A stretch of DNA of 64,000 nt from Eudorina sp. 2006-703-Eu-15 (taxonomy: Eukaryota; Chlorophyta; Chlorophyceae; Chlamydomonadales; Volvocaceae). Both the position numbers and the translations under genes were made by a program. The DNA lies in contig BDSI01000001.1 in the NCBI GenBank assembly GCA_003117195.1, positions 1,426,001-1,490,000 on the forward strand, written 5' to 3'. Within the stretch, counting starts at the first letter, position 1, and every line of letters starts with the position of its first letter. A model generated the notes under the pieces. It saw only the letters and a program-made list of their open reading frames with translations, did not search any database and was not told the DNA's origin. Positions 49,892-64,000 of this stretch are shown here, in pieces.

Positions 49892-50184
49892 GGCTCCGAT
49901 GACAGCAAGCGCTACTTTGAAAATATACTGTAGAATAGACTTAACAAAGGTGTATAATTGTCCTCTGAAAGAGGGGCTGGGCAACAGCCGAGCGGTGCGA
50001 TGGGGGTACCTGCAGAAGTGATGAGCGACAGGTGACCACGGCAGGACCACAACAAACGGGAAGTTAAGAATATTTACGGCAAATATGTTATGTTCATGTT
50101 GGATGTTGTATGCATTCCGCTGTGACTACCGATCACTCGGTGGCATAATTGCGGTCGGGAACGGCAAAATCACACCCCGCCCGG
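49892..50184. other. Intergenic: upstream of the GATase-like gene and left flank of the retrotransposon
   Basis: No coding sequence supported. It must contain the gene's promoter; no TATA box is evident. The flank CCCGCCCGG directly precedes repeat A1. Confidence 0.4.
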
Positions 50185-50872
50185 CTGTCGGGCCGTCCTG
50201 TCGTCATCGTCAATTTAGCGTCTAACTACTTTCTGGTAGTATATTATTGTGCGGAGACAACCGTTATTTTGGTTAAACGTTTGCCTTTGAGGCGGCCCAC
50301 CGTTGGCCGCAAGTGTCGGGTTGCGATCCGGTGCAAAGTAGTGTGACCATAAGTTGGCTTCAGTAAATCTTCGTTGGCATATTCATAGTTATCCGGCAAT
50401 GCTGATGAAGTTTAGTTTTGCCGTTTTTGCAGTTGGTGAGGTTGGGCAACTGCCCACCTTCGATTAGGTAACTCGAGTTGGTTTCGTAGCGAGGACGCAC
50501 TCGCTACGGCAGTCACGTTTGGCTTCTCGGAACTATAACCAGCCGAATGCGGACCGGAAAGGTCGCTTTTCGGCTCTCTTTGGTGTGTTGTAACACTGTG
50601 AGCTAGGAAAGAAGCCCTGTGTGGTTCACGACCGCATAAGATCCAGCTGCATCAAGACTACGAGAGGACCTTCAGCACAAGCCCAATCATCTGGCACGCT
50701 CAGCAGGGTAAGGAATCGCGACCTTGTCTTGCTGCTGTAACTGCCGGGACGGAAGGAGGCGCTTGAGATCTGCGCAGGGAAAAGGCTCGAGCACACGTGG
50801 AGTGTCTTCGAGTCCCATTCCGATTCTGCTGCAGGTTATTCAGAAGCCTTACGTCAAGCCGTCACATCCCAG
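50185..50872 (+). repeat. Terminal repeat A1
   Basis: 688 bp from CTGTCGGGCC to ATCCCAG, matching A2 at 60,991-61,671. It contains TGTAA motifs usable as algal poly(A) signals (near 50,590). Unlike the 3' end, it is not preceded or followed by B. Confidence 0.9.
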
Positions 50873-51198
50873 CCGAAAAGCGGTGAAGTGCGTTGTTCTC
50901 GGGGTCGGGGGCCTGCGGACGCGCGGGCAACTCAATAGGTGCAAGAGCGGGCGCCAAGCGTGCTTAGTACGCGCGTGCCACGCAACAAAATCTGTATTTT
51001 CTCTGTTTGAACGTTCGTCTCGGTTGGTTACGCCGGCCGCTTTCCGTGCAGCGCACGAAGTACCATTGGGTAACATTTCGCACACTTAGGCAGCTACCTA
51101 GGATGCGCTCCTGTGGCTAACAAGTCACAAGGATATTTGCTGTTTTGTCTGTTTGTTTGTCTGCTTTTGCTTTGTCTTCGCTGGTGGCGTACCGTTAG

Positions 51199-51771
51199 GA
51201 CGCCGCACAGATCCTGAGTCTTGCTTGTTCTTTTTGCCCAGTGAGCCGTCACGGTAGGTACCGTGATTATCCGGAGCTCGTTAGGGTCTCCTCGTCACCG
51301 TACCGAAGGGACCGTGACGACCATCGGCGTGACGACCATCGGCGTGACGACCATCGGCGACGTGAAAACCGGAGCCGCGACCGGAGTCGCAGCCCGCACG
51401 GTCGTTTTGACAACGAGCGGGAAGGCCGGAGACGTCACGACGACGCCTTAACTTCCACGCTCCTGCGGCTGTCCGAGGCTACGGAGCGTATACTTCAAGT
51501 CGTCGCTCCGCCGCCACCGGCTCCGATCCGTCCTCTCTTGCCAACGGTGGACCCGTCCATCCCCGGAGTTCCTCTGGCAGAGGCCCTCCACGGCATCACG
51601 TTGCTGCCAGAGCGACAGGGGGATCCGCTACGCATCTTGCGACTCGCTCTGGTGCTGGTCAACGCCGACGCTGTGCCGCCAACGATAGATCGCCGCGCCG
51701 TCACCAGTGACAACGGCCAGTTCATCGTGGTGCCAACGTTTGACTTGAGTGGGGCGCCCATGCAGGGCTGA
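51199..51771 (+). CDS. Arg/Ser-rich N-terminal gag region
   Basis: The frame is open from 51,199 to a TGA at 51,769 and has no ATG near its start; GTG at 51,241 is the first alternative start. A strong acceptor-like tract (TTGTTCTTTTTGCCCAG) ends at 51,241, so a 5' leader intron is possible. The product has four HRRDD-type repeats and an RS/RD-rich basic region, then a folded-looking segment. A role in RNA binding as part of gag is inferred from composition and position. Confidence 0.5.
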   Translation, partial: DAAQILSLACSFCPVSRHGRYRDYPELVRVSSSPYRRDRDDHRRDDHRRDDHRRRENRSRDRSRSPHGRFDNEREGRRRHDDALTSTLLRLSEATERILQVVAPPPPAPIRPLLPTVDPSIPGVPLAEALHGITLLPERQGDPLRILRLALVLVNADAVPPTIDRRAVTSDNGQFIVVPTFDLSGAPMQG

Positions 51772-51811
51772 CTACGGGGTTGGAAGTGTGCGGTGCGACG
51801 TCTCTTCCTTG

Positions 51812-53233
51812 TAACGCAAGGTGGAGCCCGCCCCGTCCTCCTCTCAACTTCGTAGACAGCCTGCTAGATCAGCGACTTCGGCGCAACTCAGGTCCAACCA
51901 GGCCCGGGACGTAGCTGAAGTAAGTAGGGCAGCTGAGAGGGTTTCTAGACGGGCAACGGTTAGCTCATCTGGGCAGGGCAGTGCGCAGGGTCACGAGCCT
52001 TCCCCGGAGTCTGAAGGGGTCGGGAACGGGTTACCCCCAGCGGGCAATCCGGTCCCAACTCTTGAGCGATTTGCCGACCCGTCCGGCTCCGTAGGCACTG
52101 CGACGGTATCACCCGTACGGTCTTACAGAGCTGTCTGGACTCGCTTGGTTTCGCACCTTAACTTGCCTAGATCTCGTCCGGTCCTAACCGATTACTATCA
52201 GCACTTCGACTCCATGAGCAGCTCATATCCGACCTTCGATTTCCGGGTCGGCACATTGAAGAAGTTCATCAGGGACTTCCGCAATGTGGCCTTGCTAGAC
52301 ATAGAGCAAAAGAGAGGCGCAGGCCAGGTGTCAGTGGCCACGCTGTACGGGGTTATCAAGAACGCCCCAGAGTCTGACACCGAGTTCTCTCGGTGGTGGC
52401 TCACCAAGGAGCCCACCTTCCTCGCGGATGCAGCCGCGTGGAAAGGGGCCGTACTGCCACAGGGAGTGGGAGGGGCAGGGGCGCCGCCGCCGGGATCGAC
52501 GGTGCTCACCGCTGACGACCTGTTGGATTACTACGAGCACTGCCTGAAGGAGCACTTCAAGCTGGAGCAGGAGGAGCTCGACTATCAGGCGTTCAAGGCG
52601 GCCAAGCAGGGCACCCGCAAGCCTTCAGACTTCTACCAAGAGCTGTTGGGTTTGCACGGGCGCCTCGCCGCCAGGGTCAGCCAGCAGCAGCTGGCTGAGA
52701 AGTTCGTGGATGGGTTGGATCCGGGATTGCATGCGCTGATTCGCGGGGAGGTCTTCAAGATAGGGCGTTCCCAGTGGTATGCGCACATGGCTAACTTCGC
52801 GGATCTCGCCCAGAGGGTCTGGAACAACATGCTCTCCGAGACTGGTCCGTCCACGAGCACCACCAGCGCCAAGGCGCCCGACAAGCCCAAGAAGGCGGCC
52901 GCTCCCGCTGACAGCTCGCCGGCGCTCAAGCCCAAGACGCTGTACTTGTGCAAGAACCACGGGTACAACATGTCCCATACGACCGAGAACTGCAGGCTCA
53001 ACGCGCCCAAGACCGCCATGATGACGGCAGACCCCACTGCAAGCCTCGTTCAGCAGCTGGTGGCCGCCCTGTCGTCAAGTGCGCAGGGATCCGGTGGGGC
53101 AGGATCAGGCGGCGCGAGCAAGCCCAAGAAAGGCGGTGAGCCGGGGGGATGGACGAGCGTCGGGAGGTGGCTCCAGCTCGGGAGCGGGGCCCAGTGCTGG
53201 CGCAGCACGGGGTGGCAGGGCATCGCAGAATGA
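51812..53233 (+). CDS. Gag capsid-like region
   Basis: After the stop at 51,812 this frame is open to 53,233. The segment around YYQHFDSMSSSYPTFDF to WNNMLSE has the helical pattern of retrotransposon gag proteins (DLLDYYEHCLKEHFKL, KPSDFYQELLGLHGRL, KFVDGLDP). A knuckle-like CKNHGYNMSHTTENC follows near 52,950. The frame loses sense near 53,145 at a GGGGGG run, and the CCHC-containing frame takes over. No ATG starts the frame. Confidence 0.75.
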
Positions 53234-53927
53234 CAGGGAGCAGAGGGAGGATCGGGATACCACGTCTTGCAACTACTGCCGCCGGAGAGGGCACGCCGAG
53301 GACAGGTGCTTTATCAAGCACCCCCACCTTGCCCCGCCAGGCTTCCGCCCCATGAGCCCAGTCCTGCAGATCGCCTTCGAGCAGAACCGGGCCGCCCGGC
53401 CCGCCCGGATGGCGGCGGCCGTCGTGGAGGATGACTTCGGTGAGGAGGACGATGACAAGCCCGTCTGCTTCAGCCTTGCAGTGAGCGGGTACAATGGGAT
53501 GGAGGATGGGGACGACAGGGACAACGGGATGGCAGCCGGGCTTCTGGGTGCAGCTCCGTGCACTACGGCCACGCACAAGGCGTTGGCCACCACGTCCCCG
53601 CAGAGCGTGCCACTGTCTTTCCAACCCAAGCCGCTGAACGTCTCTGCCTATCCACCGCCGCCAGTAACGCGTGAGCAGAGCGCCAAGCCCGCTGCCACAC
53701 GCATCTATCGGAAGGCCACCGTCCATGGAGCTTTCTCGCGCGGACGACCTCTTCTTTGGCCAGCTTCTGGACATGCCGATTCACCGCGTGTTCCAGGGGC
53801 TAGCCAGCCGCGCGAGCGCCCCTCCGGAGCAGGTTGCTGGGCCGAGTTCGCAGCCGCCGCAAGTGGAGGCGCCTGTCACGCAGGAGCCAAGTTCACGCGC
53901 GGAACCGGTCGCCGCGGTGGCAACTAG
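53145..53927 (+). CDS. Gag nucleocapsid region with CCHC zinc knuckle
   Basis: The frame change at about 53,140 leads into GGRASQNDREQRED and then CNYCRRRGHAEDRC, a canonical C-x2-C-x4-H-x4-C knuckle (53,270-53,310). An acidic EEDDD segment follows. This would bind the element RNA during packaging. From about 53,700 the frame at 53,671 becomes the sensible one. Confidence 0.75.
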   Translation, partial: GDGRASGGGSSSGAGPSAGAARGGRASQNDREQREDRDTTSCNYCRRRGHAEDRCFIKHPHLAPPGFRPMSPVLQIAFEQNRAARPARMAAAVVEDDFGEEDDDKPVCFSLAVSGYNGMEDGDDRDNGMAAGLLGAAPCTTATHKALATTSPQSVPLSFQPKPLNVSAYPPPPVTREQSAKPAATRIYRKATVHGAFSRGRPLLWPASGHADSPRVPGASQPRERPSGAGCWAEFAAAASGGACHAGAKFTRGTGRRGGN

Positions 53928-54651
53928 CCGCGGCCTGCTCGCCAACCACGGCCCGCCGCAGCAACACGAGGGCCACGGGTTCAGTTACGCCGTGTACGGT
54001 GCAAAAGGTGAGCCGCCGCGTACGCTGTGCAGCATGACGCCGTCTGAGCGGGAGCGCGCACTCAGCACCAACCCCCAGGCAGCCAGCTACTTGCGCCGTC
54101 CCAAAGGGCTGTATTATTACCCGGCAGGGGCCTGCGCTGTAGCTCTCGACGGACGCAGCGTCTCTGTGATTACCCTGCGGGATAAGGCAGCCACGCCGAA
54201 CATCATGCCAACCAGTGTTGCCAAGCAGCACGGGCTGAGTATTCGGCCAACCAGAACTCGCCTCTCCACCTCGCTAGAGCAGGGGTGCACCGTGCGGGGC
54301 GAGCTCGACCTAGATGGGGTATCATTTGTCTTGCTGCCCGGCACACCACACGAGACCCAAGTGCCGCTGACTCAGACGCTGGTGGCCGATGTTGCGCCTG
54401 ACTTGTTTCAGCTGCTTGTGGGCAACGAGCAGTGCAAACTGCTGGGGGATGCGCTCGAGTCATACCCAACCCCGCAACTCTCCTTCCTGCCAAACTTCAT
54501 TGAGCGCCCGGATTACCGTGTCACTCTCCCAATGAAGCCCTTCCCAGCCGGGCCCCCACGGACCAAGGGCTCATTCGCGGTAGCTTGCGTCAGCGCCGTA
54601 CTTCCCATCTCTCCAACCCCGTCGGAGGAGCTGGGGGGGAGCGTCCGCTGA
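53671..54651 (+). CDS. Protease-like region with altered active site
   Basis: A 326-codon frame. The segment VSVITLRDKAATPNIM, followed by SVAKQHGLSI, lines up with the D-[ST]-G-A...N-x-I...A...GL pattern of retroviral-type aspartic proteases, and DLFQLLVGNEQCKLL with the later hydrophobic I-L-G motif. The catalytic Asp seems kept, but the following residues are KAA instead of TGA or SGA, so activity is doubtful. The frame ends at a run of eight G near 54,640, where the polyprotein shifts frame. Confidence 0.55.
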   Translation: MSRAPSPLPHASIGRPPSMELSRADDLFFGQLLDMPIHRVFQGLASRASAPPEQVAGPSSQPPQVEAPVTQEPSSRAEPVAAVATSRGLLANHGPPQQHEGHGFSYAVYGAKGEPPRTLCSMTPSERERALSTNPQAASYLRRPKGLYYYPAGACAVALDGRSVSVITLRDKAATPNIMPTSVAKQHGLSIRPTRTRLSTSLEQGCTVRGELDLDGVSFVLLPGTPHETQVPLTQTLVADVAPDLFQLLVGNEQCKLLGDALESYPTPQLSFLPNFIERPDYRVTLPMKPFPAGPPRTKGSFAVACVSAVLPISPTPSEELGGSVR

Positions 54652-55498
54652 CGACAACAGGCCTGCCCAGCCCATGCAAGAGCCGCAGGCCCAGCCCATG
54701 CAAGAGCCGCAGGTCAGGGTGGGGCCGCACGCTGAGGTGGAGCCGCAATTCAAGGCGGAGCCGCAAGCCCAGCCTATGCAAGGGTCGCAGGTCAGGTTGG
54801 AGCCTCAAGACAAGTCGGAGCCGCAGGCCAACGCGGAGCCGCAGGGCGGGCGTACGCAGACGCCAAGAAGTCAAGGGCCCGCTCGGAGCTGGACGGCACT
54901 CGTCATGATGCTGTACTCGGCTCTCATGTCTATCGTCACGATGGTACCGCAAATGTGTCACGCCCGTGTATGTCGGCCGGCTTTGCAGGTGGTGGATTCC
55001 GTTGTCGCCCTTGCTTGTGTCGCTTCAGCTCCCCGTCACGGGCAGCGGGTGCAGTATGCCCGCAGGAATCGGGCAGGCAAACGAAAGCGCCCACAAGTGT
55101 CAGTGGGTGGCCGCGTGATCTACCCTGCTTCGCCGCCAAGGACCTGGCTTCATTGTGCGTCTTTCATGCTCGTGGTGTCCCTCCTGTTCACGCTTGCGGC
55201 AGGGGTGGGTGCCATGCAGGGCGCAGTGCTGGATGGAGACCTCGTTCGCCTGACGACTGGGTTGCAGGCAAGCTGTGTGGCATCGGGTCAGCCCGGTGCC
55301 CTTGGACCGTCTCCCTCCTACGTCGAATTTGGCTTTGATCCGCTGGCCATGACGGACATGGAGGACTACAATCAGTGGGTCACGCGGGGTCACGCCTCGT
55401 CGTTTGCCAGCGTGGGATCCTTCACACCGGAGGGGCACTCATCGGCGGCGTCCTACAGTCGCTACGAGAAGGACCAGTTGGATATGGGGAAACAGTAG
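54652..55498 (+). CDS. Linker with QEPQ repeats and two hydrophobic segments
   Basis: After the G8 run the frame reads GGASADDNRPAQPMQEPQ, with further EPQ repeats (54,674-54,850). It then has a hydrophobic stretch of about 20 residues at 54,890-54,950 and another at 55,150-55,213, and ends FGFDPLAMTDMEDY...MGK near 55,495. The two stretches could span a membrane. Such segments between protease and RT are not usual for Ty3 elements. The frame shifts again at about 55,490. Confidence 0.5.
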
Positions 55499-57578
55499 TG
55501 CATTTGATGATAAAGCCAAGTCCGAACTCCGGGAAGTTGTGAGCTCCCGCAAGGACAAGGCCTTTGCATACAGCATGGAGGAATTACCTGGGTATCAGGG
55601 GAGCCAGGGGCCTTTCACGCTAGATCTTGACACTGAGCGACCAATAGTTCAGCCCCCACGCCGCTACTCGCCGAAGGAAAAGGTGGTCGTGGTGCAGAAA
55701 ACGGCGGAGTTGGTCAAGGCGGGGATAGTGGTAGAGCATAACGGTCCAACCATTTGCGCGGTGAACCCAGTCATAGCGGCAAAGAAGGATCCAGACACGG
55801 GCATGTGGACGGATCATCGCATGGCTCAGGATTACCGACCAGTCAATAAACACACCAAGGCCGATCGCTACGGCCTCCATCGTCCAGAGGACATCTTCCA
55901 TCAGTGTGCGCGTGCGCAAGTGTTTTCTAAGCTTGACTTACGTCAGGGGTTCCTGCAAATCCCTATCTCGGCAGGAGATCAGCCCAAAACGGCGTATTGG
56001 GTTGGCAACAAGCTAATGATGTACACTCGTATGCCGTACGGTCTGAAGAACGCGTCAGCTAAGTTCCAGCGCGTGATGGATTACGAACTCGCCAAGGCGG
56101 ACCTGGACCACTGCGCTAGAGCATACATTGATGACGTTCTCATCTTCAGTGCCACACCAGAGGAGCACGTTAAGCATGTGGCGGCTGTCCTTGATATGCT
56201 GCACTCGTGTGGGTTACGTGCGCACCCTGACAAGTCCATCTTTGGCGCGGATGTTATCGAGTATTTGGGTCATAACCTCAGTGCGCAAGGGATTAGCCCT
56301 CACCACGCCAAGGTGGCGGCGATCTTGTCCATGCCCGCGCCCAAGAACGTTTCCGAACTGCGTGCACACTTGGGTTTTATCAACTACTACCGGTGCTATA
56401 TTCCAAACATGAGTCAGCTCACTGTTGATCTGACTGTTCTGCTCAAGAAGGACCAGCCCTGGGTTTGGGGGCCTGCGCAGGAAGCCGCGTTTGCAGCTAT
56501 CAAGGCTGTCTTTCAGAATGACGGGCTGATCTTGCGACAGGTTGATTACTCAAAGCCGCTCGTGTTACACACGGATTTCTCTAACCGTGGTATAGGTGCC
56601 GTACTCGGACAGTTGGATGAGGAGGGGAACGAGTACATGTGCGCTTGCATCAGCCGGTCCTTGAACAAGCATGAACGCAACTACAGCAGTTACAAGGGGG
56701 AGATGCTAGCAGCAGTGTGGGCTGTGAAAATGTTTCGTCATCACTTGTTGGGTGGTCCTAAGTTTCGGCTAGTGACTGATCACCAACCTCTGACGTACTT
56801 GATGAGTTCGGATGGGCTCACGGGGCAGTACGCGCGGTTCGCCCTGGTCATGCAGGAATATGACTTTGAGGTAGTGCATCGCCCTGGTGTCAAACATCAG
56901 AATGCTGACATGTTGTCCCGTCATCCTCAGGCGTCAAGTGCGGACAATACAGGTGCCCGGATGGACGAGGACGCGCCTGCCCGTGTTCTCCAAGTGACAG
57001 CTGCGCTGTCCTATGCCCGGCAGGACTGCGCCCTGACCTCCCTTGCGTTGGCATCTAACATCCCTCTTGCCCCGTTCTCTGATGATTTCTGTTTTTCACA
57101 AGATTTACTTTTGCCTGGCAATTTGGGCCTGCCGTCTGACTTTGTGGACCACCCGCCCAGCGAGGGGCCTGAGCCTGAGAGAAGGGGGTGGGAAAGGGCT
57201 CGCGAACGGGCCGTTCATGCAGTACGGCAAGCGTCCCAGAAGAATCCAGAGCTTTTCGCATCTTCTCACGTTGCACCCTCAACTCGTGCGTTTTTCACTC
57301 GTGCGTTGGGTCACGGGATCACTGTTTTCGAGCCCTTGGGTGGCATGTGCGCCGGTCTTGAGTCCTGCTTGCGTGCGGGTTTCAAGGTTGACCGGTATAT
57401 TTGTTCAGAGTCTAATCCTTCCGCTGTCAGTGTTGTGTCGGCGCGCTTGGACAAGTTAAGTGCCGAATTTCCCAAGTTGCTGTCCCCTGAGGCATATAAA
57501 AGAGTCTGGATCGACTTGCCCTCAGATCTTTGCACGATCGATGAGCAGGCCTTGCTTTCCGCAGGAGCTAGCCTGTGA
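55490..57578 (+). CDS. Pol: Ty3/gypsy reverse transcriptase, RNase H and methyltransferase N half
   Basis: The frame is open from 55,404 but sensible from about 55,490; residue numbers count from 55,404. RT: FSKLDLRQGFLQIPI with the first catalytic Asp near 178, RMPYGLKNA, and YIDD at 241-244. RNase H: VLHTDFSNRG (Asp 391), YKGEMLAAV (Glu 433), RLVTDHQPL (Asp 459). A tether ends near residue 625. A C5-methyltransferase start follows: VFEPLGGMCAGL at 640-651 (SAM-binding motif I) and VDRYICSESNP with Glu 669 (motif II). Reverse transcription and RNA degradation functions look intact. The frame ends TGA at 57,576, and the methyltransferase continues in the next frame. Confidence 0.9.
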
Positions 57579-58250
57579 CGGTTCTCAGTGGTTTGTCTTT
57601 GCGAGCTGGTGCTGGCACGATGTGGGAAAGGAGCCGGGTTCCCTGGCTCCAGGTCAGAGCGTCACTGATGAATTACTACGGGTTGTGCAGACCATGCAGC
57701 GCATACAGCGGCGTGCGCCGGCGCACATGCTGGTGTGCGAACAGCCTAGGGAAACTTGGCAGAACGCAACCGCCGCGCAGCAACGCATCACTTCAGTTTT
57801 GGGTCAGCCCGTGTAGCCCGTGGTGGTGGACGCCGTACAATGTGGGTCACTGGCTCATCGTCTCTCGGCCCATTGGACCAACCTGGCCCCAGCGGCCCAG
57901 CTGGAGGCTGTGCTGTCTTGCGTCAAGCCTGATCCAACAGTCGTGTTGCAGAATGTGCTCTCACCAGGTCGGGTTACCTCCGTTTCAACCGCGGTGGAGC
58001 AGGCAGGTCTGTACTCACGCAATCAAGTCGGTAAGCCCATCGTTGTCGCACCGAGTCTCAGTCGGTCATCATTGCGTGCATTAGCCGAGGTGGTTGAGGA
58101 TGAGTCTAGTCCTTACGAGGGATCTTTGTCTATTGTGGAATGTGAGAAAATCATGGGGTATCTGCCAGGTGTGACTGAGGCACCAGATGTTTCTGAAGCA
58201 GATCGACGGGTCATCTTAGGTCTGGCACCGGATGCCACCCTGACGCTGTC
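57556..58250 (+). CDS. C5-cytosine-methyltransferase-like domain, C half
   Basis: In the +1 frame, WFVFASWCWHDVG corresponds to motif IV, with a cysteine (codon 57,610) at the catalytic position but Trp in place of the preceding Pro. LVCEQPRE keeps the Glu of motif VI (normally ENV). VDAVQCGSLAHRLSAHWTNL matches the A-H-R...W-x-N-L stretch around motif VIII of DNMT3-type enzymes. VECEKIMGYLPGVTEA and RRVILGLAP match motifs IX-X. One TAG (57,814) interrupts the frame. A real relationship to DNMTs is strongly suggested, but activity is uncertain because of WC and the missing second Arg of motif VIII. Confidence 0.7.
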
Positions 58251-58399
58251 CGTGCTGAGCATCTGCCGTGTCCTATCAAACACCTCGTCACACGATGTTG
58301 CAGCTGCATGCACCGGAATTTCTTCTGCTCTCCAGCCTGTTCATGGGCTGGCTTACTCCCTGTGTTCCGTCGAGTCCTTTTTCCCTTGGTCTGAAGTTT

Positions 58400-59643
58400 T
58401 TGCCGCCGCGTCTCACGCGGAAGCGGAGGAGTCCTCTGGTGCAGCTGGTCGCTGCCCGGACATCTGGGAGGACGAACCGTCCATCTTCTTTATCGGTAAC
58501 GGTGCTCATATGCCAGGATTGCCGCCTGAGGAGCAGCGGCGGGTTAGCCGTCGTGCACGCTCATACCGCATGCAAGGAGGCATTCTCTATCGGGTGTTCA
58601 ATGACTCTCGTGCTCGGGTTGTTCCTAAGCCTCCGGATCGTGTTGAGCTAGTGAAGCGCACACATGAAGAGACGGGCCATTTTGGCGTACGTCGCACTAT
58701 GGCGCTGCTGCTCACGCAACATTGGTGGCATGGCATGCACCGAGATGTTTCCAGTATTGTACGACACTGTTCGCATTGTGACCGTGTCAACTCGTCGTTT
58801 GCATCTGGCCCTCCAACCTTGCATCCTTTGCCTGTTCAGGGGTTGTTTTATCGTTGGGGTGTTGACCTATGTGGGCCGTTGCCTCGTACTACTCAGGGTA
58901 ATACGTACGTCATGATCTGTGTAGAGCATTTTTCCAAATACGCTGTGTTTATCCCCTTGCCTGACAAGGAGGCCGTGCACACCTCCAGTGCTTTCTTGAG
59001 TCAGATTCTTGCCCGATATGGGGCCTGTGCAGAGGTATGCACAGATGGCGGTGGTGAATGGAAGGGGCAGTTTGCGCAACTCATGCTTGACAGTCTGATT
59101 GACCACCGCCAGACTTCACCCAATCACCCTCAGGCCAACGGTCTGGCTGAACGGGTCGTGCAGACATGCAAGCGCGCGCTGCGTCGCATGGCGCGGCAGC
59201 GGGCTGATGGGCAGCAGTGGGATGAGTTGCTTCCGTACGTCATGCTGGGCTACAACTGCTCCAAGCACAAGGCGACGGGGTTCAGCCCGTACTTGCTACT
59301 CCACGGGGTCGAGCCGACTATCCCTCCTGCCATCAAGCCACGGTTTGACGGGAATATCTCGTTTGATGATGTTGAAACCGCTGCAGCCTCCCTTGTGTCG
59401 CGTGGCCAAGCCATGCGCCAGCGTATTTCTATCGCGGGGGATAATTTGTTAATAGCGCAGCACCGGGATTCGCTTCGCTACGCTTCCCTCAGGGGGGGCG
59501 GGTATCACCCAAAAATACGTCAGTTTGACGTCGGGGACTATGTATATTTCCGTAATACTACGAGCCGTACTACCCTTGATCCGCGGCTCAGCCAACCATA
59601 TTGCGAGTTGCTGAGGTTCGCCCTAGCGGGGTCATTATATTAG
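58400..59643 (+). CDS. Pol: integrase (HHCC zinc finger and DDE core)
   Basis: Same frame as the methyltransferase C half, open from 57,817. The zinc-binding region is HEETGHFGVRRTM...HCSHC. The catalytic triad is visible as WGVDLCGPLP (Asp), CTDGGGEWKGQF (Asp) and HPQANGLAERVVQ (Glu). The fold continues through LPYVMLGYNCSKHKATGFSP, a typical GKEx-like box. This frame ends TAG at 59,641, but sense passes to another frame near 59,600 (VAEVRPSGVIILEGYDG), the integrase C-terminal domain. It inserts the cDNA into the host chromosome. Confidence 0.9.
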
Positions 59644-59923
59644 AGGGGTACGATGGCAAGTTCCTGAAAGGTCATGTCAAGGATTGCGCTCCATGCCACC
59701 TGCCCATCAGGGATGAGGTGGTCGACCCTCGTTTAGCGCGTCCTGACGCTACGTTGTCTTGCCAAGTGTGTCACCTACCTACTGGGAAGAATGGATGCTA
59801 TTGTGCGATGGTTGTGGAAAGGGGTGGCATACTTACTGCCTGAAACCGCCTCTCACGGTCATTCTACCGGGAACTTGGGTGTGTCCTGACTGCGTTGACA
59901 GGGTATTACGCCCGAACAGATAG
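59601..59923 (+). CDS. Integrase C-terminal barrel and PHD finger
   Basis: Frame 59,601 onwards gives EVRPSGVIILEGYDGKFLK...CAPCHLP and then CQVCHLPTGKN. A one-base slip at about 59,788 leads to WMLLCDGCGKGWHTYC, LKPPL and WVCPDC, ending TAG at 59,921. Together these form a complete C4HC3 PHD finger (C-x2-C, C-x2-C, H-x2-C, C-x2-C) with the Trp and LKPPL of canonical members. PHD fingers read histone tails, so a role in choosing integration sites is inferred, by analogy with chromodomains of chromoviruses. Confidence 0.75.
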
Positions 59924-60313
59924 ATGCCAACCCTGTTCATCCGCAAACTAAGCAAGGGTACCGCATCAACCTCTCTCCCTCTCAGGCCAAAAACACCACA
60001 GGTGCTGGCCAGCCTTCAAGGAGCAAGGGTCGTGCGTGTCAGCACCAGCCCGGAGTCGAACTCTACAAGGGCGGTGTTGCTACGTATGTGGGAGACAAGG
60101 CGGCAGCACGTGTTCGAAGTGCTGTACGACGATGGAGAGCTGGAGCAGGTGGACACAAATCGCCTTAGGGCGATGCTGGCGCCGAAGGCCGCTCGTCCAA
60201 GACGAGCGGTGCAGGCTGCCGCGGTTACCGCGGCGAGCCCTGACGAGTGGAGCATTCAAGCGTGTGCTGATGTTGCTGTTGCGTTGGCGACTGCCATGCC
60301 GGGGGATCATCCA
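59924..60313 (+). CDS. Tudor-like segment
   Basis: A new ATG at 59,924 lies next to the PHD frame's stop, in the same frame. ARVVRVST and then VFEVLYDDGELEQVDTNRLR resemble a Tudor/Agenet-type small barrel (V-x-Y-x-D-G-[ED]...L). The assignment rests on a short motif. The frame then drifts (about 60,310) into one reading EKVALLARAWETSAIE and CPWQ. Confidence 0.45.
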
Positions 60314-60872
60314 ATGAGAAGGTGGCCTTGCTGGCCCGCGCCTGGGAAACCAGCGCCATCGAACAACCGCTCATTCCTCCGGATCATGTGGCGTCATTGA
60401 CCGGTTCAATCAATCTCCAGCTTGTTGGGGAGGTGGTCTGTCCTTGGCAGTCCAGCCGGCCGTACAAGTCGCTTTGGTCAGTCATGGTGTTCGTGTGTTG
60501 AAGGGAAAGCTGGGTGACGTACGGGATCCTCTTTCGCCGGCATTTTACAAGTCCGTCGAAGAGCAGGTGTCGTCCATCGAGTCAGTGTTTTTGTCAGTCG
60601 CTGGGGCACCTCTGGATTTACCAATTCCAGCGGCGCTCAAGTATGCCAAGAGCTTTGTGATCGCTCGCGTACCGCTGCATTATGTGTCGGCAGCTGACGA
60701 GTTGCGAATGCGCTGGCTCAAGTCGCTGCAGCGCCAGGGTCGTTTGTTGATGTTGCGGTGTCCATTGAAGGATGCCACGGATCAGTTCTTCATGTGGCTG
60801 ATTGTCTTCGCCACTCCAGTCATCAAGCAGTTGATAGTCAAGGATTCGGGCCTAGTAGAGGACCTGTTGTGA
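60313..60872 (+). CDS. C-terminal region of the retrotransposon polyprotein, unassigned
   Basis: Two frames cover a compact region: VALLARAWETSAIEQPLIP to VVCPWQSS, then from 60,444 VRVLKGKLGDVRDPLSPAFY, IPAALKYAKSFVIARVPLHY and FFMWLIVFATPVIKQLIV, ending TGA at 60,870. The alternation of strands and helices would suit a Rossmann-type (possibly methyltransferase-like) fold, but no motif proves it. No gene start of its own is evident. Confidence 0.45.
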
Positions 60873-60930
60873 GTTTGGTGCGCTCAGTCACGTGTGCACC
60901 GCGCCCACGGCTTAATAATGCGGTGCCGCT

Positions 60931-60940
60931 GGGGGGGGAG
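60931..60940 (+). promoter_or_regulatory. Polypurine tract
   Basis: GGGGGGGGAG lies directly before TGTTCC at 60,941. This is the expected plus-strand primer site just upstream of a 3' LTR, so reverse transcription would define the repeat start at B1, not at A2. Confidence 0.65.
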
Positions 60941-60990
60941 TGTTCCCTCGGCACATGCTTTGTTCGTACGACAGTCATCTGACCTGACAG
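60941..60990 (+). repeat. Terminal repeat B1
   Basis: 50 bp, TGTTCCCTCGGCACATGC to CTGACAG, nearly identical to B2 at 61,672-61,720 and absent beside A1. Confidence 0.9.
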
Positions 60991-61671
60991 CTGTCGGGCC
61001 GTCCTGTCGTCATCGTCAATTTAGCGTCTAACTACTTTCTGGTAGTATATTATTGTGCGGAGACAACCGTTATTTTGGTTAAACGTTTGCCTTTGAGGCG
61101 GCCCACCGTTGGCCGCAAGTGTCGGGTTGCGATCCGGTGCAAAGTAGTGTGACCATAAGTTGCTTCAGTAATCTTCGTTGGCATATTCATAGTTATCCGG
61201 TAATGCTGATGAAGTTTAGTTTTGCCGTTTTTGCAGTTGGTGAGGTTGGGCAACTGCCCACCTTCGATTAGGTAACTCGAGTTGGTTTCGTAGCGAGGAC
61301 GCACTCGCTACGGCAGTCACGTTTGGCTTCTCGGAACTATAACCAGCCGAATGCGGACCGGAAAGTCGCTTTTCGGTCTCTTTGGTGTGTTGTAACACTG
61401 TGAGCTAGGAAAGAAGCCCTGTGTGGTTCACGACCGCATAAGATCCAGCTGCATCAAGACTACGAGAGACCTTCAGCACAAGCCAATCATCTGGCACGCT
61501 CAGCAGGGTAAGGAATCGCGACCTTGTCTTGCTGCTGTAACTGCGGGACGGAAGGAGGCGCTTGAGATCTGCGCAGGGAAAAGGCTCGAGCACACGTGGA
61601 GTGTCTTCGAGTCCCATTCCGATTCTGCTGCAGGTTATTCAGAAGCCTTACGTCAAGCCGTCACATCCCAG
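60991..61671 (+). repeat. Terminal repeat A2
   Basis: 681 bp matching A1 with one substitution and seven single-base deletions. Confidence 0.95.
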
Positions 61672-61720
61672 TGTTCCTCGGCACATGCTTTGTTCGTACG
61701 ACAGTCATCTGACCTGACAC
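61672..61720 (+). repeat. Terminal repeat B2
   Basis: 49 bp; differs from B1 by one missing C and the last base. Host-like sequence (CGTTTCTTTGC) follows. Confidence 0.9.
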
Positions 61721-61792
61721 GTTTCTTTGCAGCGCTTGAACTTTAGGAACCGTGAGGACCCGCGCTTCCTTTTGCAATTTATCCTGTACATA

Positions 61793-62127: not shown

Positions 62128-62264
62128 NNNNNNNNNNNNNNNNNNNNNNNNNNNNNNNNNNNNNNNNNNNNNNNNNNNNNNNNNNNNNNNNNNNNNNNNN
62201 NNNNNNNNNNNNNNNNNNNNNNNNNNNNNNNNNNNNNNNNNNNNNNNNNNNNNNNNNNNNNNNN
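62128..62264. other. Assembly gap (137 N)
   Basis: Unknown sequence; apparent ORFs across it are meaningless. Confidence 1.
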
Positions 62265-62516
62265 GTCTCTTGTTCGTTAAGACGGTTGATTCCCAAAGCG
62301 TGAGTGTGACCGCCCGTACTCGTGCCGAGTTGATTGGGGCTTTCCGCGGGCCGACCGAACCACAAGCCAATATTCTCCTCTTCCGATTGGCCCTTCTGTA
62401 GTCCTAGTTCGGCCCCCAGAATTCGGGCCTCGAGTACGAGCGGTCGTTGAACTACGATCAGATGGAGATGATTGAAATGCCACTGACTATAAGGAAATAA
62501 ATAAATAACCTATAAA

Positions 62517-63879
62517 TTGATTGCTTCCGGAGGCTCTGGCGGCGCTTATTACGGAGCGTCGCGGCGCCGTGGGTTCTTCGCTCCGTGCGACGTGTCTCAG
62601 CCCCGTCCGCTGGTGAGGTTCTGGCTTCTCGGCTCCCGCACCCTCTGCGTTCATAACCCTGGTGCGTCCGTGGCGCAGGTGCCTCCAGTGCCTACCTTAC
62701 GTGCGTTGCGCGAAGAGCGGGTGGCCGCTGTTGTTGCGGCCACCTCCGGAGCCCAGGCGTCCAGTCCCGATCCTCCCGAGTCGCTGCGCGATACGCTCCA
62801 GCAAGTTTTGGGCGTACAGCAGCGTGCCTGGGCCTCTGATACCAACCGCCGGCGTGACGCTGCGCTGGAGGAGTTCAGCGCCTGGCTCCAGTGGAACGGG
62901 GACGGCGCCACGCTGCTCACCTGCTCCCCGGAGCATGTCCTGGCGTACGTGCATGGCTACTGGATTCCGCGTCACCCGCATCCCGGGTCGGGTTCTAGCG
63001 CCCCAGACCGTGCTGGGCAGCTGTCTCATCTGTCCACTGCAATTCCGCTTGTTGGGCCGCGGTGGCCACATACGATGAATTGGCGTGCGTGGGTAATCCC
63101 TGTGTCTCGTTGGATGTAAGCTGTACCGTAAGGGGTATGGCCGCCTGGCTGTCGAGGAGGGGTTCGAGGAACGGTCTGGCTGTCCCCTTGAGCTATACCA
63201 AGTATCGGGGCTTGCTGAGGTTCATGCGTGCTGCGCCGCCGTTGCCCCCGTCCTCGACCGGCTTCTGTTGCTGCGAGATCTGTCGTGTTTTGTGTTCATG
63301 TGGCGCACCACCACCCGCGGCCATGATTGCGGGAAACTGTGTGTCACCGACTTCCGGGATCCAGCCAATCCTCGGCGGCCGTACGGCGGGTTCCCGCTAT
63401 CGGTACTCCCAGTGTACCCGCCGGGTTTCCATTTGTTGTTGTCTCAGTTGGTACCAAAACGTATCAAGGTGTCCGTGCGCCTCCCGTGAAGGTCGAGCCA
63501 GCCGCGGATCCGCAGGATTGCTTCGTGCGGGCGCTGGCTGGGTACATGCAGGCCTGCGTCGCGGCTGGAGCCCGCCTGGTAGCCCGACCTCGGGTACTTC
63601 TTCCGGCCTCTGCGCCGGGACCACCAGGGTTTTGCGGAGGCCCCGATGAGTAGCTCTGGTTTGACTTACCGGTTGCGCCATCACTTGCAGGGTGCGGGTC
63701 TGTACGATGGTGAAACGTGTCATAGTTTCCGCCGGGGTGCTTTGCAGCATGCTGCTCAGCAGGGCTCGGACGCCGCCTCGTTGCTAACCCTGAGCCAGCT
63801 GCGCAGCACCGGTACTCTAAAGCGGTATCTGGATCCTCACCGGCACGATGCGCCTGGCGGTACCCGTCGCCGGGTGTGA
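62517..63879 (+). pseudogene. Tyrosine-recombinase element ORF (DIRS- or Crypton-like), frameshifted
   Basis: The frame from about 62,517 (no ATG) gives a SAM-like core-binding region: QQRAWASDTNRRRDAALEEF, WLQWNG and SPEHVLAYVHGYW. Three or four frame changes follow (about 63,050, 63,230, 63,450 and 63,640) through LLRDLSCFVFMWRTTTRG (likely first catalytic Arg region). The final frame has CHSFRRGALQHAAQQG, the H-x-x-R box, and GTLKRYLDPHRH with the nucleophilic Tyr. These are the C-terminal motifs of tyrosine recombinases. Two TGTAA words follow at 63,932 and 63,957. No RT is in the window, so DIRS and Crypton cannot be told apart. The upstream 62,265-62,516 has no gene. Confidence 0.65.
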
Positions 63880-64000
63880 GGCTCTGGTGTGTGGTCTGGC
63901 GAGCGCGCAGGGGGGGCGGGTGGGGCGCGCATGTAACGGCCTTCCACAATTACACATGTAACATTACGCTTTCTACCAAAGGGCAGATCTCGTGGAGGTC

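What the first reader, a model, noticed from the sequence alone, without database searches (positions are those of the whole stretch)
57300..60320. A Ty3/gypsy element carrying a DNMT3-like writer and PHD/Tudor-like readers
Between RNase H and integrase the polyprotein shows C5-methyltransferase motifs I, II, IV, VI, VIII and IX-X in the right order and spacing (VFEPLGG, ICSESNP, ASWC, CEQP, AHR...HWTNL, CEKIMGYLPG). After the integrase come a full C4HC3 PHD finger and a Tudor-like motif. An element combining cytosine methylation with histone reading could mark its own copies or choose sites by chromatin state. Retrotransposon-borne DNMTs have been reported in other algal and protist lineages, as far as I recall, but I know of no volvocine case combined with a PHD finger. 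The altered motif IV (WC for PC) may mean loss of catalysis or a changed role.
Basis: partly seen in the sequence, partly recalled or inferred. Interest (0 to 1): 0.88.

Follow-up and report, generated by a model that had tools for sequence, protein, structure and literature searches.

The report
Algal retrotransposon with a dead methyltransferase
A jumping gene of a green alga, probably a volvocine, carries inside its own polyprotein a relative of the DNA-methylating enzyme DNMT3 that has lost its active-site residues yet is still conserved, next to a histone-reading finger; most related jumping genes examined from other green algae and metagenomes keep those residues.

Summary

Catalytic Cys, motif VI Glu-Asn and second motif VIII Arg are all kept in 121 of 123 proteins. 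The exceptions are the window family and Pleodorina starrii; metagenomic P0124 matches them. In the 181 Mb genome the altered motif WCWHDVGK stands in 37 of 39 places that fit within two bases; two DNA patterns for the canonical motif find none. So these elements appear to keep a dead, DNMT3L-like domain. Repeats are split A1-coding-B1-A2-B2, as reported for a Klebsormidium Gypsy-Dnmt3 element, with 4-bp target duplications in 3 of 6 copies. DNMT-bearing retrotransposons are known (de Mendoza 2018). New, as far as my searches reach, are the chlorophyte PHD architecture and the conserved loss of catalysis. Function is inferred.

The parts
50184..50872 (+). terminal repeat A1 (5' end of the element)
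   Evidence: 98.8% identical to 60990-61671; GC then TGTCGGG
53268..53309 (+). CCHC zinc knuckle of gag
   Evidence: CNYCRRRGHAEDRC read directly
55353..57578 (+). open stretch with reverse transcriptase, RNase H and the first part of the methyltransferase fold
   Evidence: Pfam RVT_1 1.5e-24, RT_RNaseH 1e-31; YIDD at 56124
57285..58320 (+). DNMT3-like domain, catalytic residues lost; broken here by a frame change (about 57566-57579) and TAG 57814-57816
   Evidence: tblastn with the L003 domain; motifs; profile and fold of relatives
57583..57624 (+). altered motif IV, SQWFVFASWCWHDV
58636..59256 (+). integrase: H2C2 zinc domain and DDE core
   Evidence: Pfam Integrase_H2C2 4e-15; rve 1.3e-6 (29 bits, cut-off 32.6) and rve_3 0.0016, both under their cut-offs here; rve over the cut-off in P0003, P0004 and P0005
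59757..59893 (+). PHD finger (C4HC3), split over two frames in this copy
   Evidence: PF00628 5.4e-10 for 59768-59923; 1e-10 in L003; nearest solved: Lid, BAZ2B
60104..60178 (+). Tudor-like stretch (weak)
   Evidence: PF21743 E 0.033, below cut-off
60318..60872 (+). C-terminal domain: second methyltransferase-like (Rossmann) fold, motifs I and IV lost
   Evidence: alignment of relatives with DPWAG/TSPWF; fold of the Pleodorina relative
60931..60940 (+). purine-rich tract GGGGGGGGAG, polypurine-tract-like
   Evidence: read directly
60939..60989 (+). terminal repeat B1
   Evidence: 98% identical to 61670-61719
60985..60995 (+). B1/A2 junction TGACAGCTGTC, holding the 10-bp palindrome GACAGCTGTC
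   Evidence: same palindrome in the 3' pieces of 8 of 10 other copies (not C73, C32)
60990..61671 (+). terminal repeat A2
61670..61719 (+). terminal repeat B2, ending CTGACA (3' end of the element)

Best explanation
The window holds a broken copy of a Ty3/gypsy-type retroelement family of green algae. Its ancestor had captured a DNMT3 catalytic domain between RNase H and integrase, and a PHD finger (with a Tudor-like stretch and, in many members, a second methyltransferase-like domain) after the integrase. Shown: domain order, DNMT3 kinship, PHD, loss of the catalytic residues in the window family, and conservation of the altered domain. Inferred: in these elements the DNMT3-like fold no longer methylates; it has become a non-catalytic DNA- or partner-binding module, comparable to DNMT3L beside DNMT3A, and works with the PHD (which resembles readers of unmodified histone H3) to hold the cDNA-integrase complex on chromatin and steer where it inserts. 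Also inferred: relatives with the residues intact methylate their own cDNA, as de Mendoza 2018 proposed for other DNMT-bearing retrotransposons.
Against: No biochemistry. The domain is little or no more constrained than the linkers beside it (pN/pS 0.14 vs 0.175 and 0.137; RNase H 0.047, integrase 0.036), and synonymous sites are near saturation, so a specific binding role is not shown. The 37 places are few lineages copied many times. Lineages IV-VI are much more degenerate, which looks like decay. The 123 are P0001 plus hits of two searches, mostly the best 120 of 234 from an active-type query, so degenerate relatives elsewhere may be under-sampled. The patterns cover only close variants of the motif and had no positive control. 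The PHD ligand is guessed from similarity.
Confidence: 0.6

Rival explanations
1. Passenger in decay: once captured, the methyltransferase lost its use in these hosts, and the fold persists only because it sits in mid-polyprotein, where deletion would harm cleavage or spacing.
For: Linkers are about as conserved as the domain; lineages IV-VI show deep and varied decay; the C-terminal second methyltransferase fold has lost both motifs in 33 of 66 relatives.
Against: WCWHDVGK is kept at protein level across three subfamilies that differ silently, in P. starrii and in P0124; motifs I and II remain near-normal in lineages I-III.
Confidence: 0.3
2. Working cytosine writer with a shifted active-site Cys: the Cys of WCW acts in place of the usual one and the element marks its own copies.
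For: A Cys stands one residue before the catalytic place, and a Glu two residues after the motif VI place, so another gap placement is conceivable; motif I is intact.
Against: W and D on both sides align without a gap between them, so the Cys position itself is Trp; three residues are missing just after; the second motif VIII Arg is lost; the loop after the motif is poorly modelled (pLDDT below 50, residues 116-128); the element is not CpG-depleted (observed/expected 0.915; rest of the window 0.760, pieces of it 0.382-1.051), which is weak evidence.
Confidence: 0.06
3. The motifs are chance matches and the region is an ordinary spacer.
For: Pfam finds no DNA_methylase in single members of this family.
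Confidence: 0.01

Closest known systems
KnitGypsy-Dnmt3 of Klebsormidium nitens (de Mendoza et al. 2018, PMC5890265)
   Same: LTR-Gypsy pol with a Dnmt3 domain inside the pol polyprotein; repeats arranged as in DIRS elements (their Fig. 4 legend); several copies.
   Different: Charophyte, not chlorophyte; key residues reported conserved there, lost here; the main text has 0 occurrences of PHD, and I saw no second methyltransferase-like domain in the parts read. Its sequence was not in hand, so homology is untested.
SymbioDIRS-Dnmt3 and SymbioLINE-Dnmt of Symbiodinium (same paper)
   Same: Retrotransposon-encoded cytosine methyltransferases reported under purifying selection; SymbioDIRS domains methylate CG in yeast.
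   Different: DIRS or LINE elements, with tyrosine recombinase or endonuclease; key residues reported conserved.
DNMT3L (mammals; recalled)
   Same: Catalytically dead DNMT3 relative acting with a zinc-finger reader of unmodified H3K4.
   Different: Host gene and partner of DNMT3A; its ADD domain is not a simple PHD; no retroelement.
Chromoviruses (recalled)
   Same: Ty3/gypsy elements with a histone-reading domain after the integrase.
   Different: Chromodomain, not PHD; no methyltransferase fold.

Membership tests
Ty3/gypsy retroelements | pol order RT - RNase H - integrase with a DDE integrase | tested here: met
   Pfam hits in the window, rve itself under its cut-off there and over it in three relatives; order in 89 of 89 relatives
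Ty3/gypsy retroelements | two like, complete LTRs, one at each end | tested here: not met
   split repeats A1 / B1-A2-B2 in the window and other copies; so filed as Ty3/gypsy-type pol, not as a canonical LTR element
DIRS/PAT elements | split direct repeats | tested here: met
DIRS/PAT elements | tyrosine recombinase instead of DDE integrase; no target-site duplication | tested here: not met
   H2C2 and rve integrase, no Phage_integrase in the pieces scanned; 4-bp duplications in 3 of 6 copies
DNMT3 methyltransferases | DNMT3-type fold and sequence profile | tested here: met
DNMT3 methyltransferases | catalytic Cys of motif IV, Glu-Asn of motif VI, Arg-x-Arg of motif VIII | tested here: not met
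   window residues; so a DNMT3 relative, not a DNA methyltransferase by these residues
KnitGypsy-Dnmt3 | Gypsy pol with Dnmt3 inside, DIRS-like repeats | tested here: met
   against the paper's text
KnitGypsy-Dnmt3 | sequence kinship with the Klebsormidium element | not tested
   no Klebsormidium sequence was in hand
PHD fingers | C4HC3 pattern and Pfam profile | tested here: met
   PF00628 5.4e-10, 1e-10 in L003; broken over two frames in the window copy
Tudor domains | profile match over the curated cut-off | tested here: inconclusive
   PF21743 14.4 bits, cut-off 27.2
Class I / D12-type methyltransferases (C-terminal domain) | fold, plus motifs I and IV | tested here: inconclusive
Chromatin-targeted integration | insertion sites biased by a histone mark | not testable with these tools
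   no chromatin data

The most novel reading that the evidence does not exclude
These retroelements turned a captured DNMT3 writer into a DNMT3L-like decoy: the dead domain binds the element's DNA or a host methyltransferase and, guided by its PHD finger, keeps new copies unmethylated or aims them at unmodified-H3 chromatin. Because degenerate motifs occur in three element groups that do not join on the best integrase tree, the switch from writer to decoy may have happened more than once in one host lineage.
Probability: 0.15. Interest if true: 0.85.

Novelty: new variant of a known kind. Interest (0 to 1): 0.66.

Why it matters
Why transposons should carry the very enzyme type that silences them is an open question. 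Here is a large green-algal family with a DNMT3 domain and a histone reader in one polyprotein, with members that keep the catalytic residues and members that have lost them yet conserve the domain. That natural contrast makes the question testable: compare methylation and insertion sites of copies with live and dead domains. It also shows that a methyltransferase fold in a retrotransposon cannot be taken as evidence of methylation, and it links split-repeat Gypsy-type elements of chlorophytes, by architecture, to the one described from a charophyte.

Tried and rejected
Rejected: an active writer in the window family (motif register); chance motifs; the idea that the frame breaks in the methyltransferase part are mere base-calling errors (same break and a TAG at the same place in copy C405). 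CpG depletion as a trace of self-methylation: none seen, weak evidence either way.

One loss or several: the IQ-TREE integrase tree (61 rows: 9 of this group and 52 of the other 108 available, picked for diversity; bootstrap not settled) puts I, II, P. starrii and III together (99/91), IV, VI and VII together (98/94), and V inside a 7-row set (97/95) with six relatives that keep the Cys; this needs 3 changes. But the AU test does not reject one clade of all nine (p 0.16) nor the first two groups joined (p 0.495). A FastTree of 117 integrases gave the same first two groups (0.992, 0.981) with weak deep branches. FastTree of the domain itself (130 tips) supports I + II + P0002 + P0124 (0.996); III to VI are unresolved long branches.

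Led nowhere or little: single members against NCBIfam (dcm E 0.28); PHROG hits only around motif IX; search with alignment A1 found one protein, P0124; profile A4 against PDB found nothing up to E 0.1, so the second methyltransferase rests on PHROG, sub-cut-off Pfam and fold evidence. Paper searches showed no title that reports a chlorophyte Gypsy element with DNMT and PHD, but I opened only three papers; most subscription journals, bioRxiv and Repbase were not searched. The organism was not identified: identity to a Pleodorina starrii protein (59-64% in the methyltransferase domain; up to 85% in the integrase) suggests a volvocine alga other than P. starrii.
Full report
What is there. The finding's region lies in an 11.5-kb retroelement, window 50184-61719. 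It has gag with a CCHC knuckle (53268-53309), RT and RNase H (Pfam 1.5e-24 and 1e-31), then the methyltransferase-like stretch, an H2C2/DDE integrase (4e-15 and 1.3e-6, the latter under its cut-off), a PHD finger (5.4e-10), a weak Tudor-like stretch and a C-terminal domain. This copy is broken. The first break and the TAG in the methyltransferase part recur in copy C405.

Copies in the genome. The window lies in a 181-Mb, 3033-contig assembly. The integrase-side protein has 76 matches there and the methyltransferase region has 107 (both are lower bounds of matches, and one copy can give several). Several near copies read without a stop through this region. I used one such natural frame (L003, protein P0001) as the query for the family.

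Architecture. With profiles made from P0002-P0005, 89 of 123 proteins have RT, methyltransferase and integrase; the order is RT, RNase H, methyltransferase, integrase in 89 of 89, and 85 of 89 have the PHD. Of 93 with integrase and more than 350 residues after it, 93 have the PHD and 66 the C-terminal domain. The 123 are P0001 plus 122 database proteins, most without a species name; the lower 114 hits were not seen.

Catalysis. In an alignment of all 123 the motif IV Cys, the motif VI Glu and Asn, and the second Arg of motif VIII are each kept in 121, and the same two proteins lack all four: P0001 and the P. starrii protein. The residue before the Cys is Glu in 73 and Pro in 35, so the textbook PC is not needed for membership. 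The two exceptions read W-C-W-H-D with three residues missing after it, and H-R-L-S in motif VIII. A further fragment, P0124, is the same. Of 16 copies aligned, 15 read WCWHDVGK and one WCWQDVGK. A DNA pattern that admits only WCWHDVGK has 37 matches in the genome and no backward-control match; with up to two mismatches there are 39 (control 5), so 37 of 39 encode it, in three spellings, one each for subfamilies I, IIa and IIb. Two patterns for canonical motif IV have no match, nor do their controls; they cover only close variants. With the P0004 domain as query the best genome matches are again the degenerate families, at 29-33% identity (87 matches, best 3.1e-37).

Other lineages of the same genome. 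I read the region in lineages III (L051, L054), IV (L052), V (L053, L055), VI (L056) and VII (L061), all in open frames. All five lack the motif VI Asn and the second motif VIII Arg (lineage V judged from L055). III, IV, VI and VII also lack the Cys; V keeps a Cys in register. IV, VI and VII keep the motif VI Glu. Motif I is near normal in I-III and VII and worn in IV-VI (VII by eye). Whether this is one loss or several is open (see Tried and rejected).

Selection. Between subfamilies IIa and IIb, pN/pS is 0.13-0.14 for the domain, 0.05 for RNase H, 0.036-0.055 for integrase, 0.16-0.18 and 0.14-0.15 for the flanking linkers and 0.208 for the PHD; between I and II it is 0.33-0.36 for the domain and 0.16-0.17 for integrase. 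Silent sites are near saturation. So the domain is under purifying selection after the loss, but not clearly more than its neighbours.

PHD. The nearest solved PHDs are those of Lid, BAZ2B, KMT2D, KAT6A, PHF12, PHF21A and KDM5A/B. From memory, several of these read unmodified H3K4; the mark is therefore a guess.

Ends. Repeats are A1 (50184-50872), B1 (60939-60989), A2 (60990-61671), B2 (61670-61719). The same B1-A2-B2 order is in C55, C14 and C6, and B1/B2 pairs are in C24 and C10; of the ten other copies looked at, the rest are nested, rearranged or cut. A1 and A2 are 100% identical in C55, C14 and C111, 99.1% in C6 and 98.8% in the window. Elements run from TGTC to CTGACA. Of six copies with both ends found, C55 (ATGC), C14 (TTGG) and a nested element at C150 (GGCG) have matching 4-bp flanks; window, C6 and C32 do not (read by eye). 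The B1/A2 junction holds the palindrome GACAGCTGTC, while the A2/B2 junction varies. De Mendoza et al. describe the repeats of the Klebsormidium Gypsy-Dnmt3 element as DIRS-like too. My inference: cDNA ends join into a circle at A/B and the DDE integrase opens it at B/A.

Known work. I read parts 1-4 of 7 of PMC5890265 and searched its text for PHD, Volvox, Chlamydomonas and chlorophyte (0 each). Of PMC12344493 I saw passages only; it cites retrotransposon DNMT3 from streptophytes and dinoflagellates. Of PMC6338049 I saw passages only. Other papers were seen as search listings. 'KnitGypsy' occurs in one paper of the library.

Verdict. Observation partly confirmed, interpretation partly supported: a DNMT3-type fold and a PHD are there, but by its residues the element is no writer. 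New variant of a known kind.

Noticed in passing
window 62505-63880: Just downstream of the element, beyond a run of N (about 62130-62264), lie broken frames with HSFRRG and a later Tyr like a tyrosine recombinase (PF00589 E 0.068, below cut-off): perhaps a remnant of another element.
   Followed up: partly
window 54887-54913 and 55154-55189: Two hydrophobic, membrane-like stretches upstream of RT; relatives P0003 and P0005 also begin with hydrophobic stretches.
   Followed up: no
L034, L032, window 61640-61730: A2/B2 junctions differ from copy to copy (one extra base in C14; loss of the start of B2 with filler in C55), while B1/A2 keeps its palindrome: looks like end-joined circle junctions.
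   Followed up: partly
L037/L038 (C150), L044 (C111): Nested insertions of related elements with another repeat type; the outer C150 element has the 4-bp duplication GGCG.
   Followed up: partly
G000 C76:452086-452244 and C118:371977-372279: The only two PF00145 matches that one search reports in the genome, probably exons of host methyltransferases.
   Followed up: no
database proteins P0021, P0043, P0066, P0073, P0084, P0105: Six of the listed relatives carry a G-patch domain (PF01585) in their precomputed Pfam list, another captured accessory domain.
   Followed up: no
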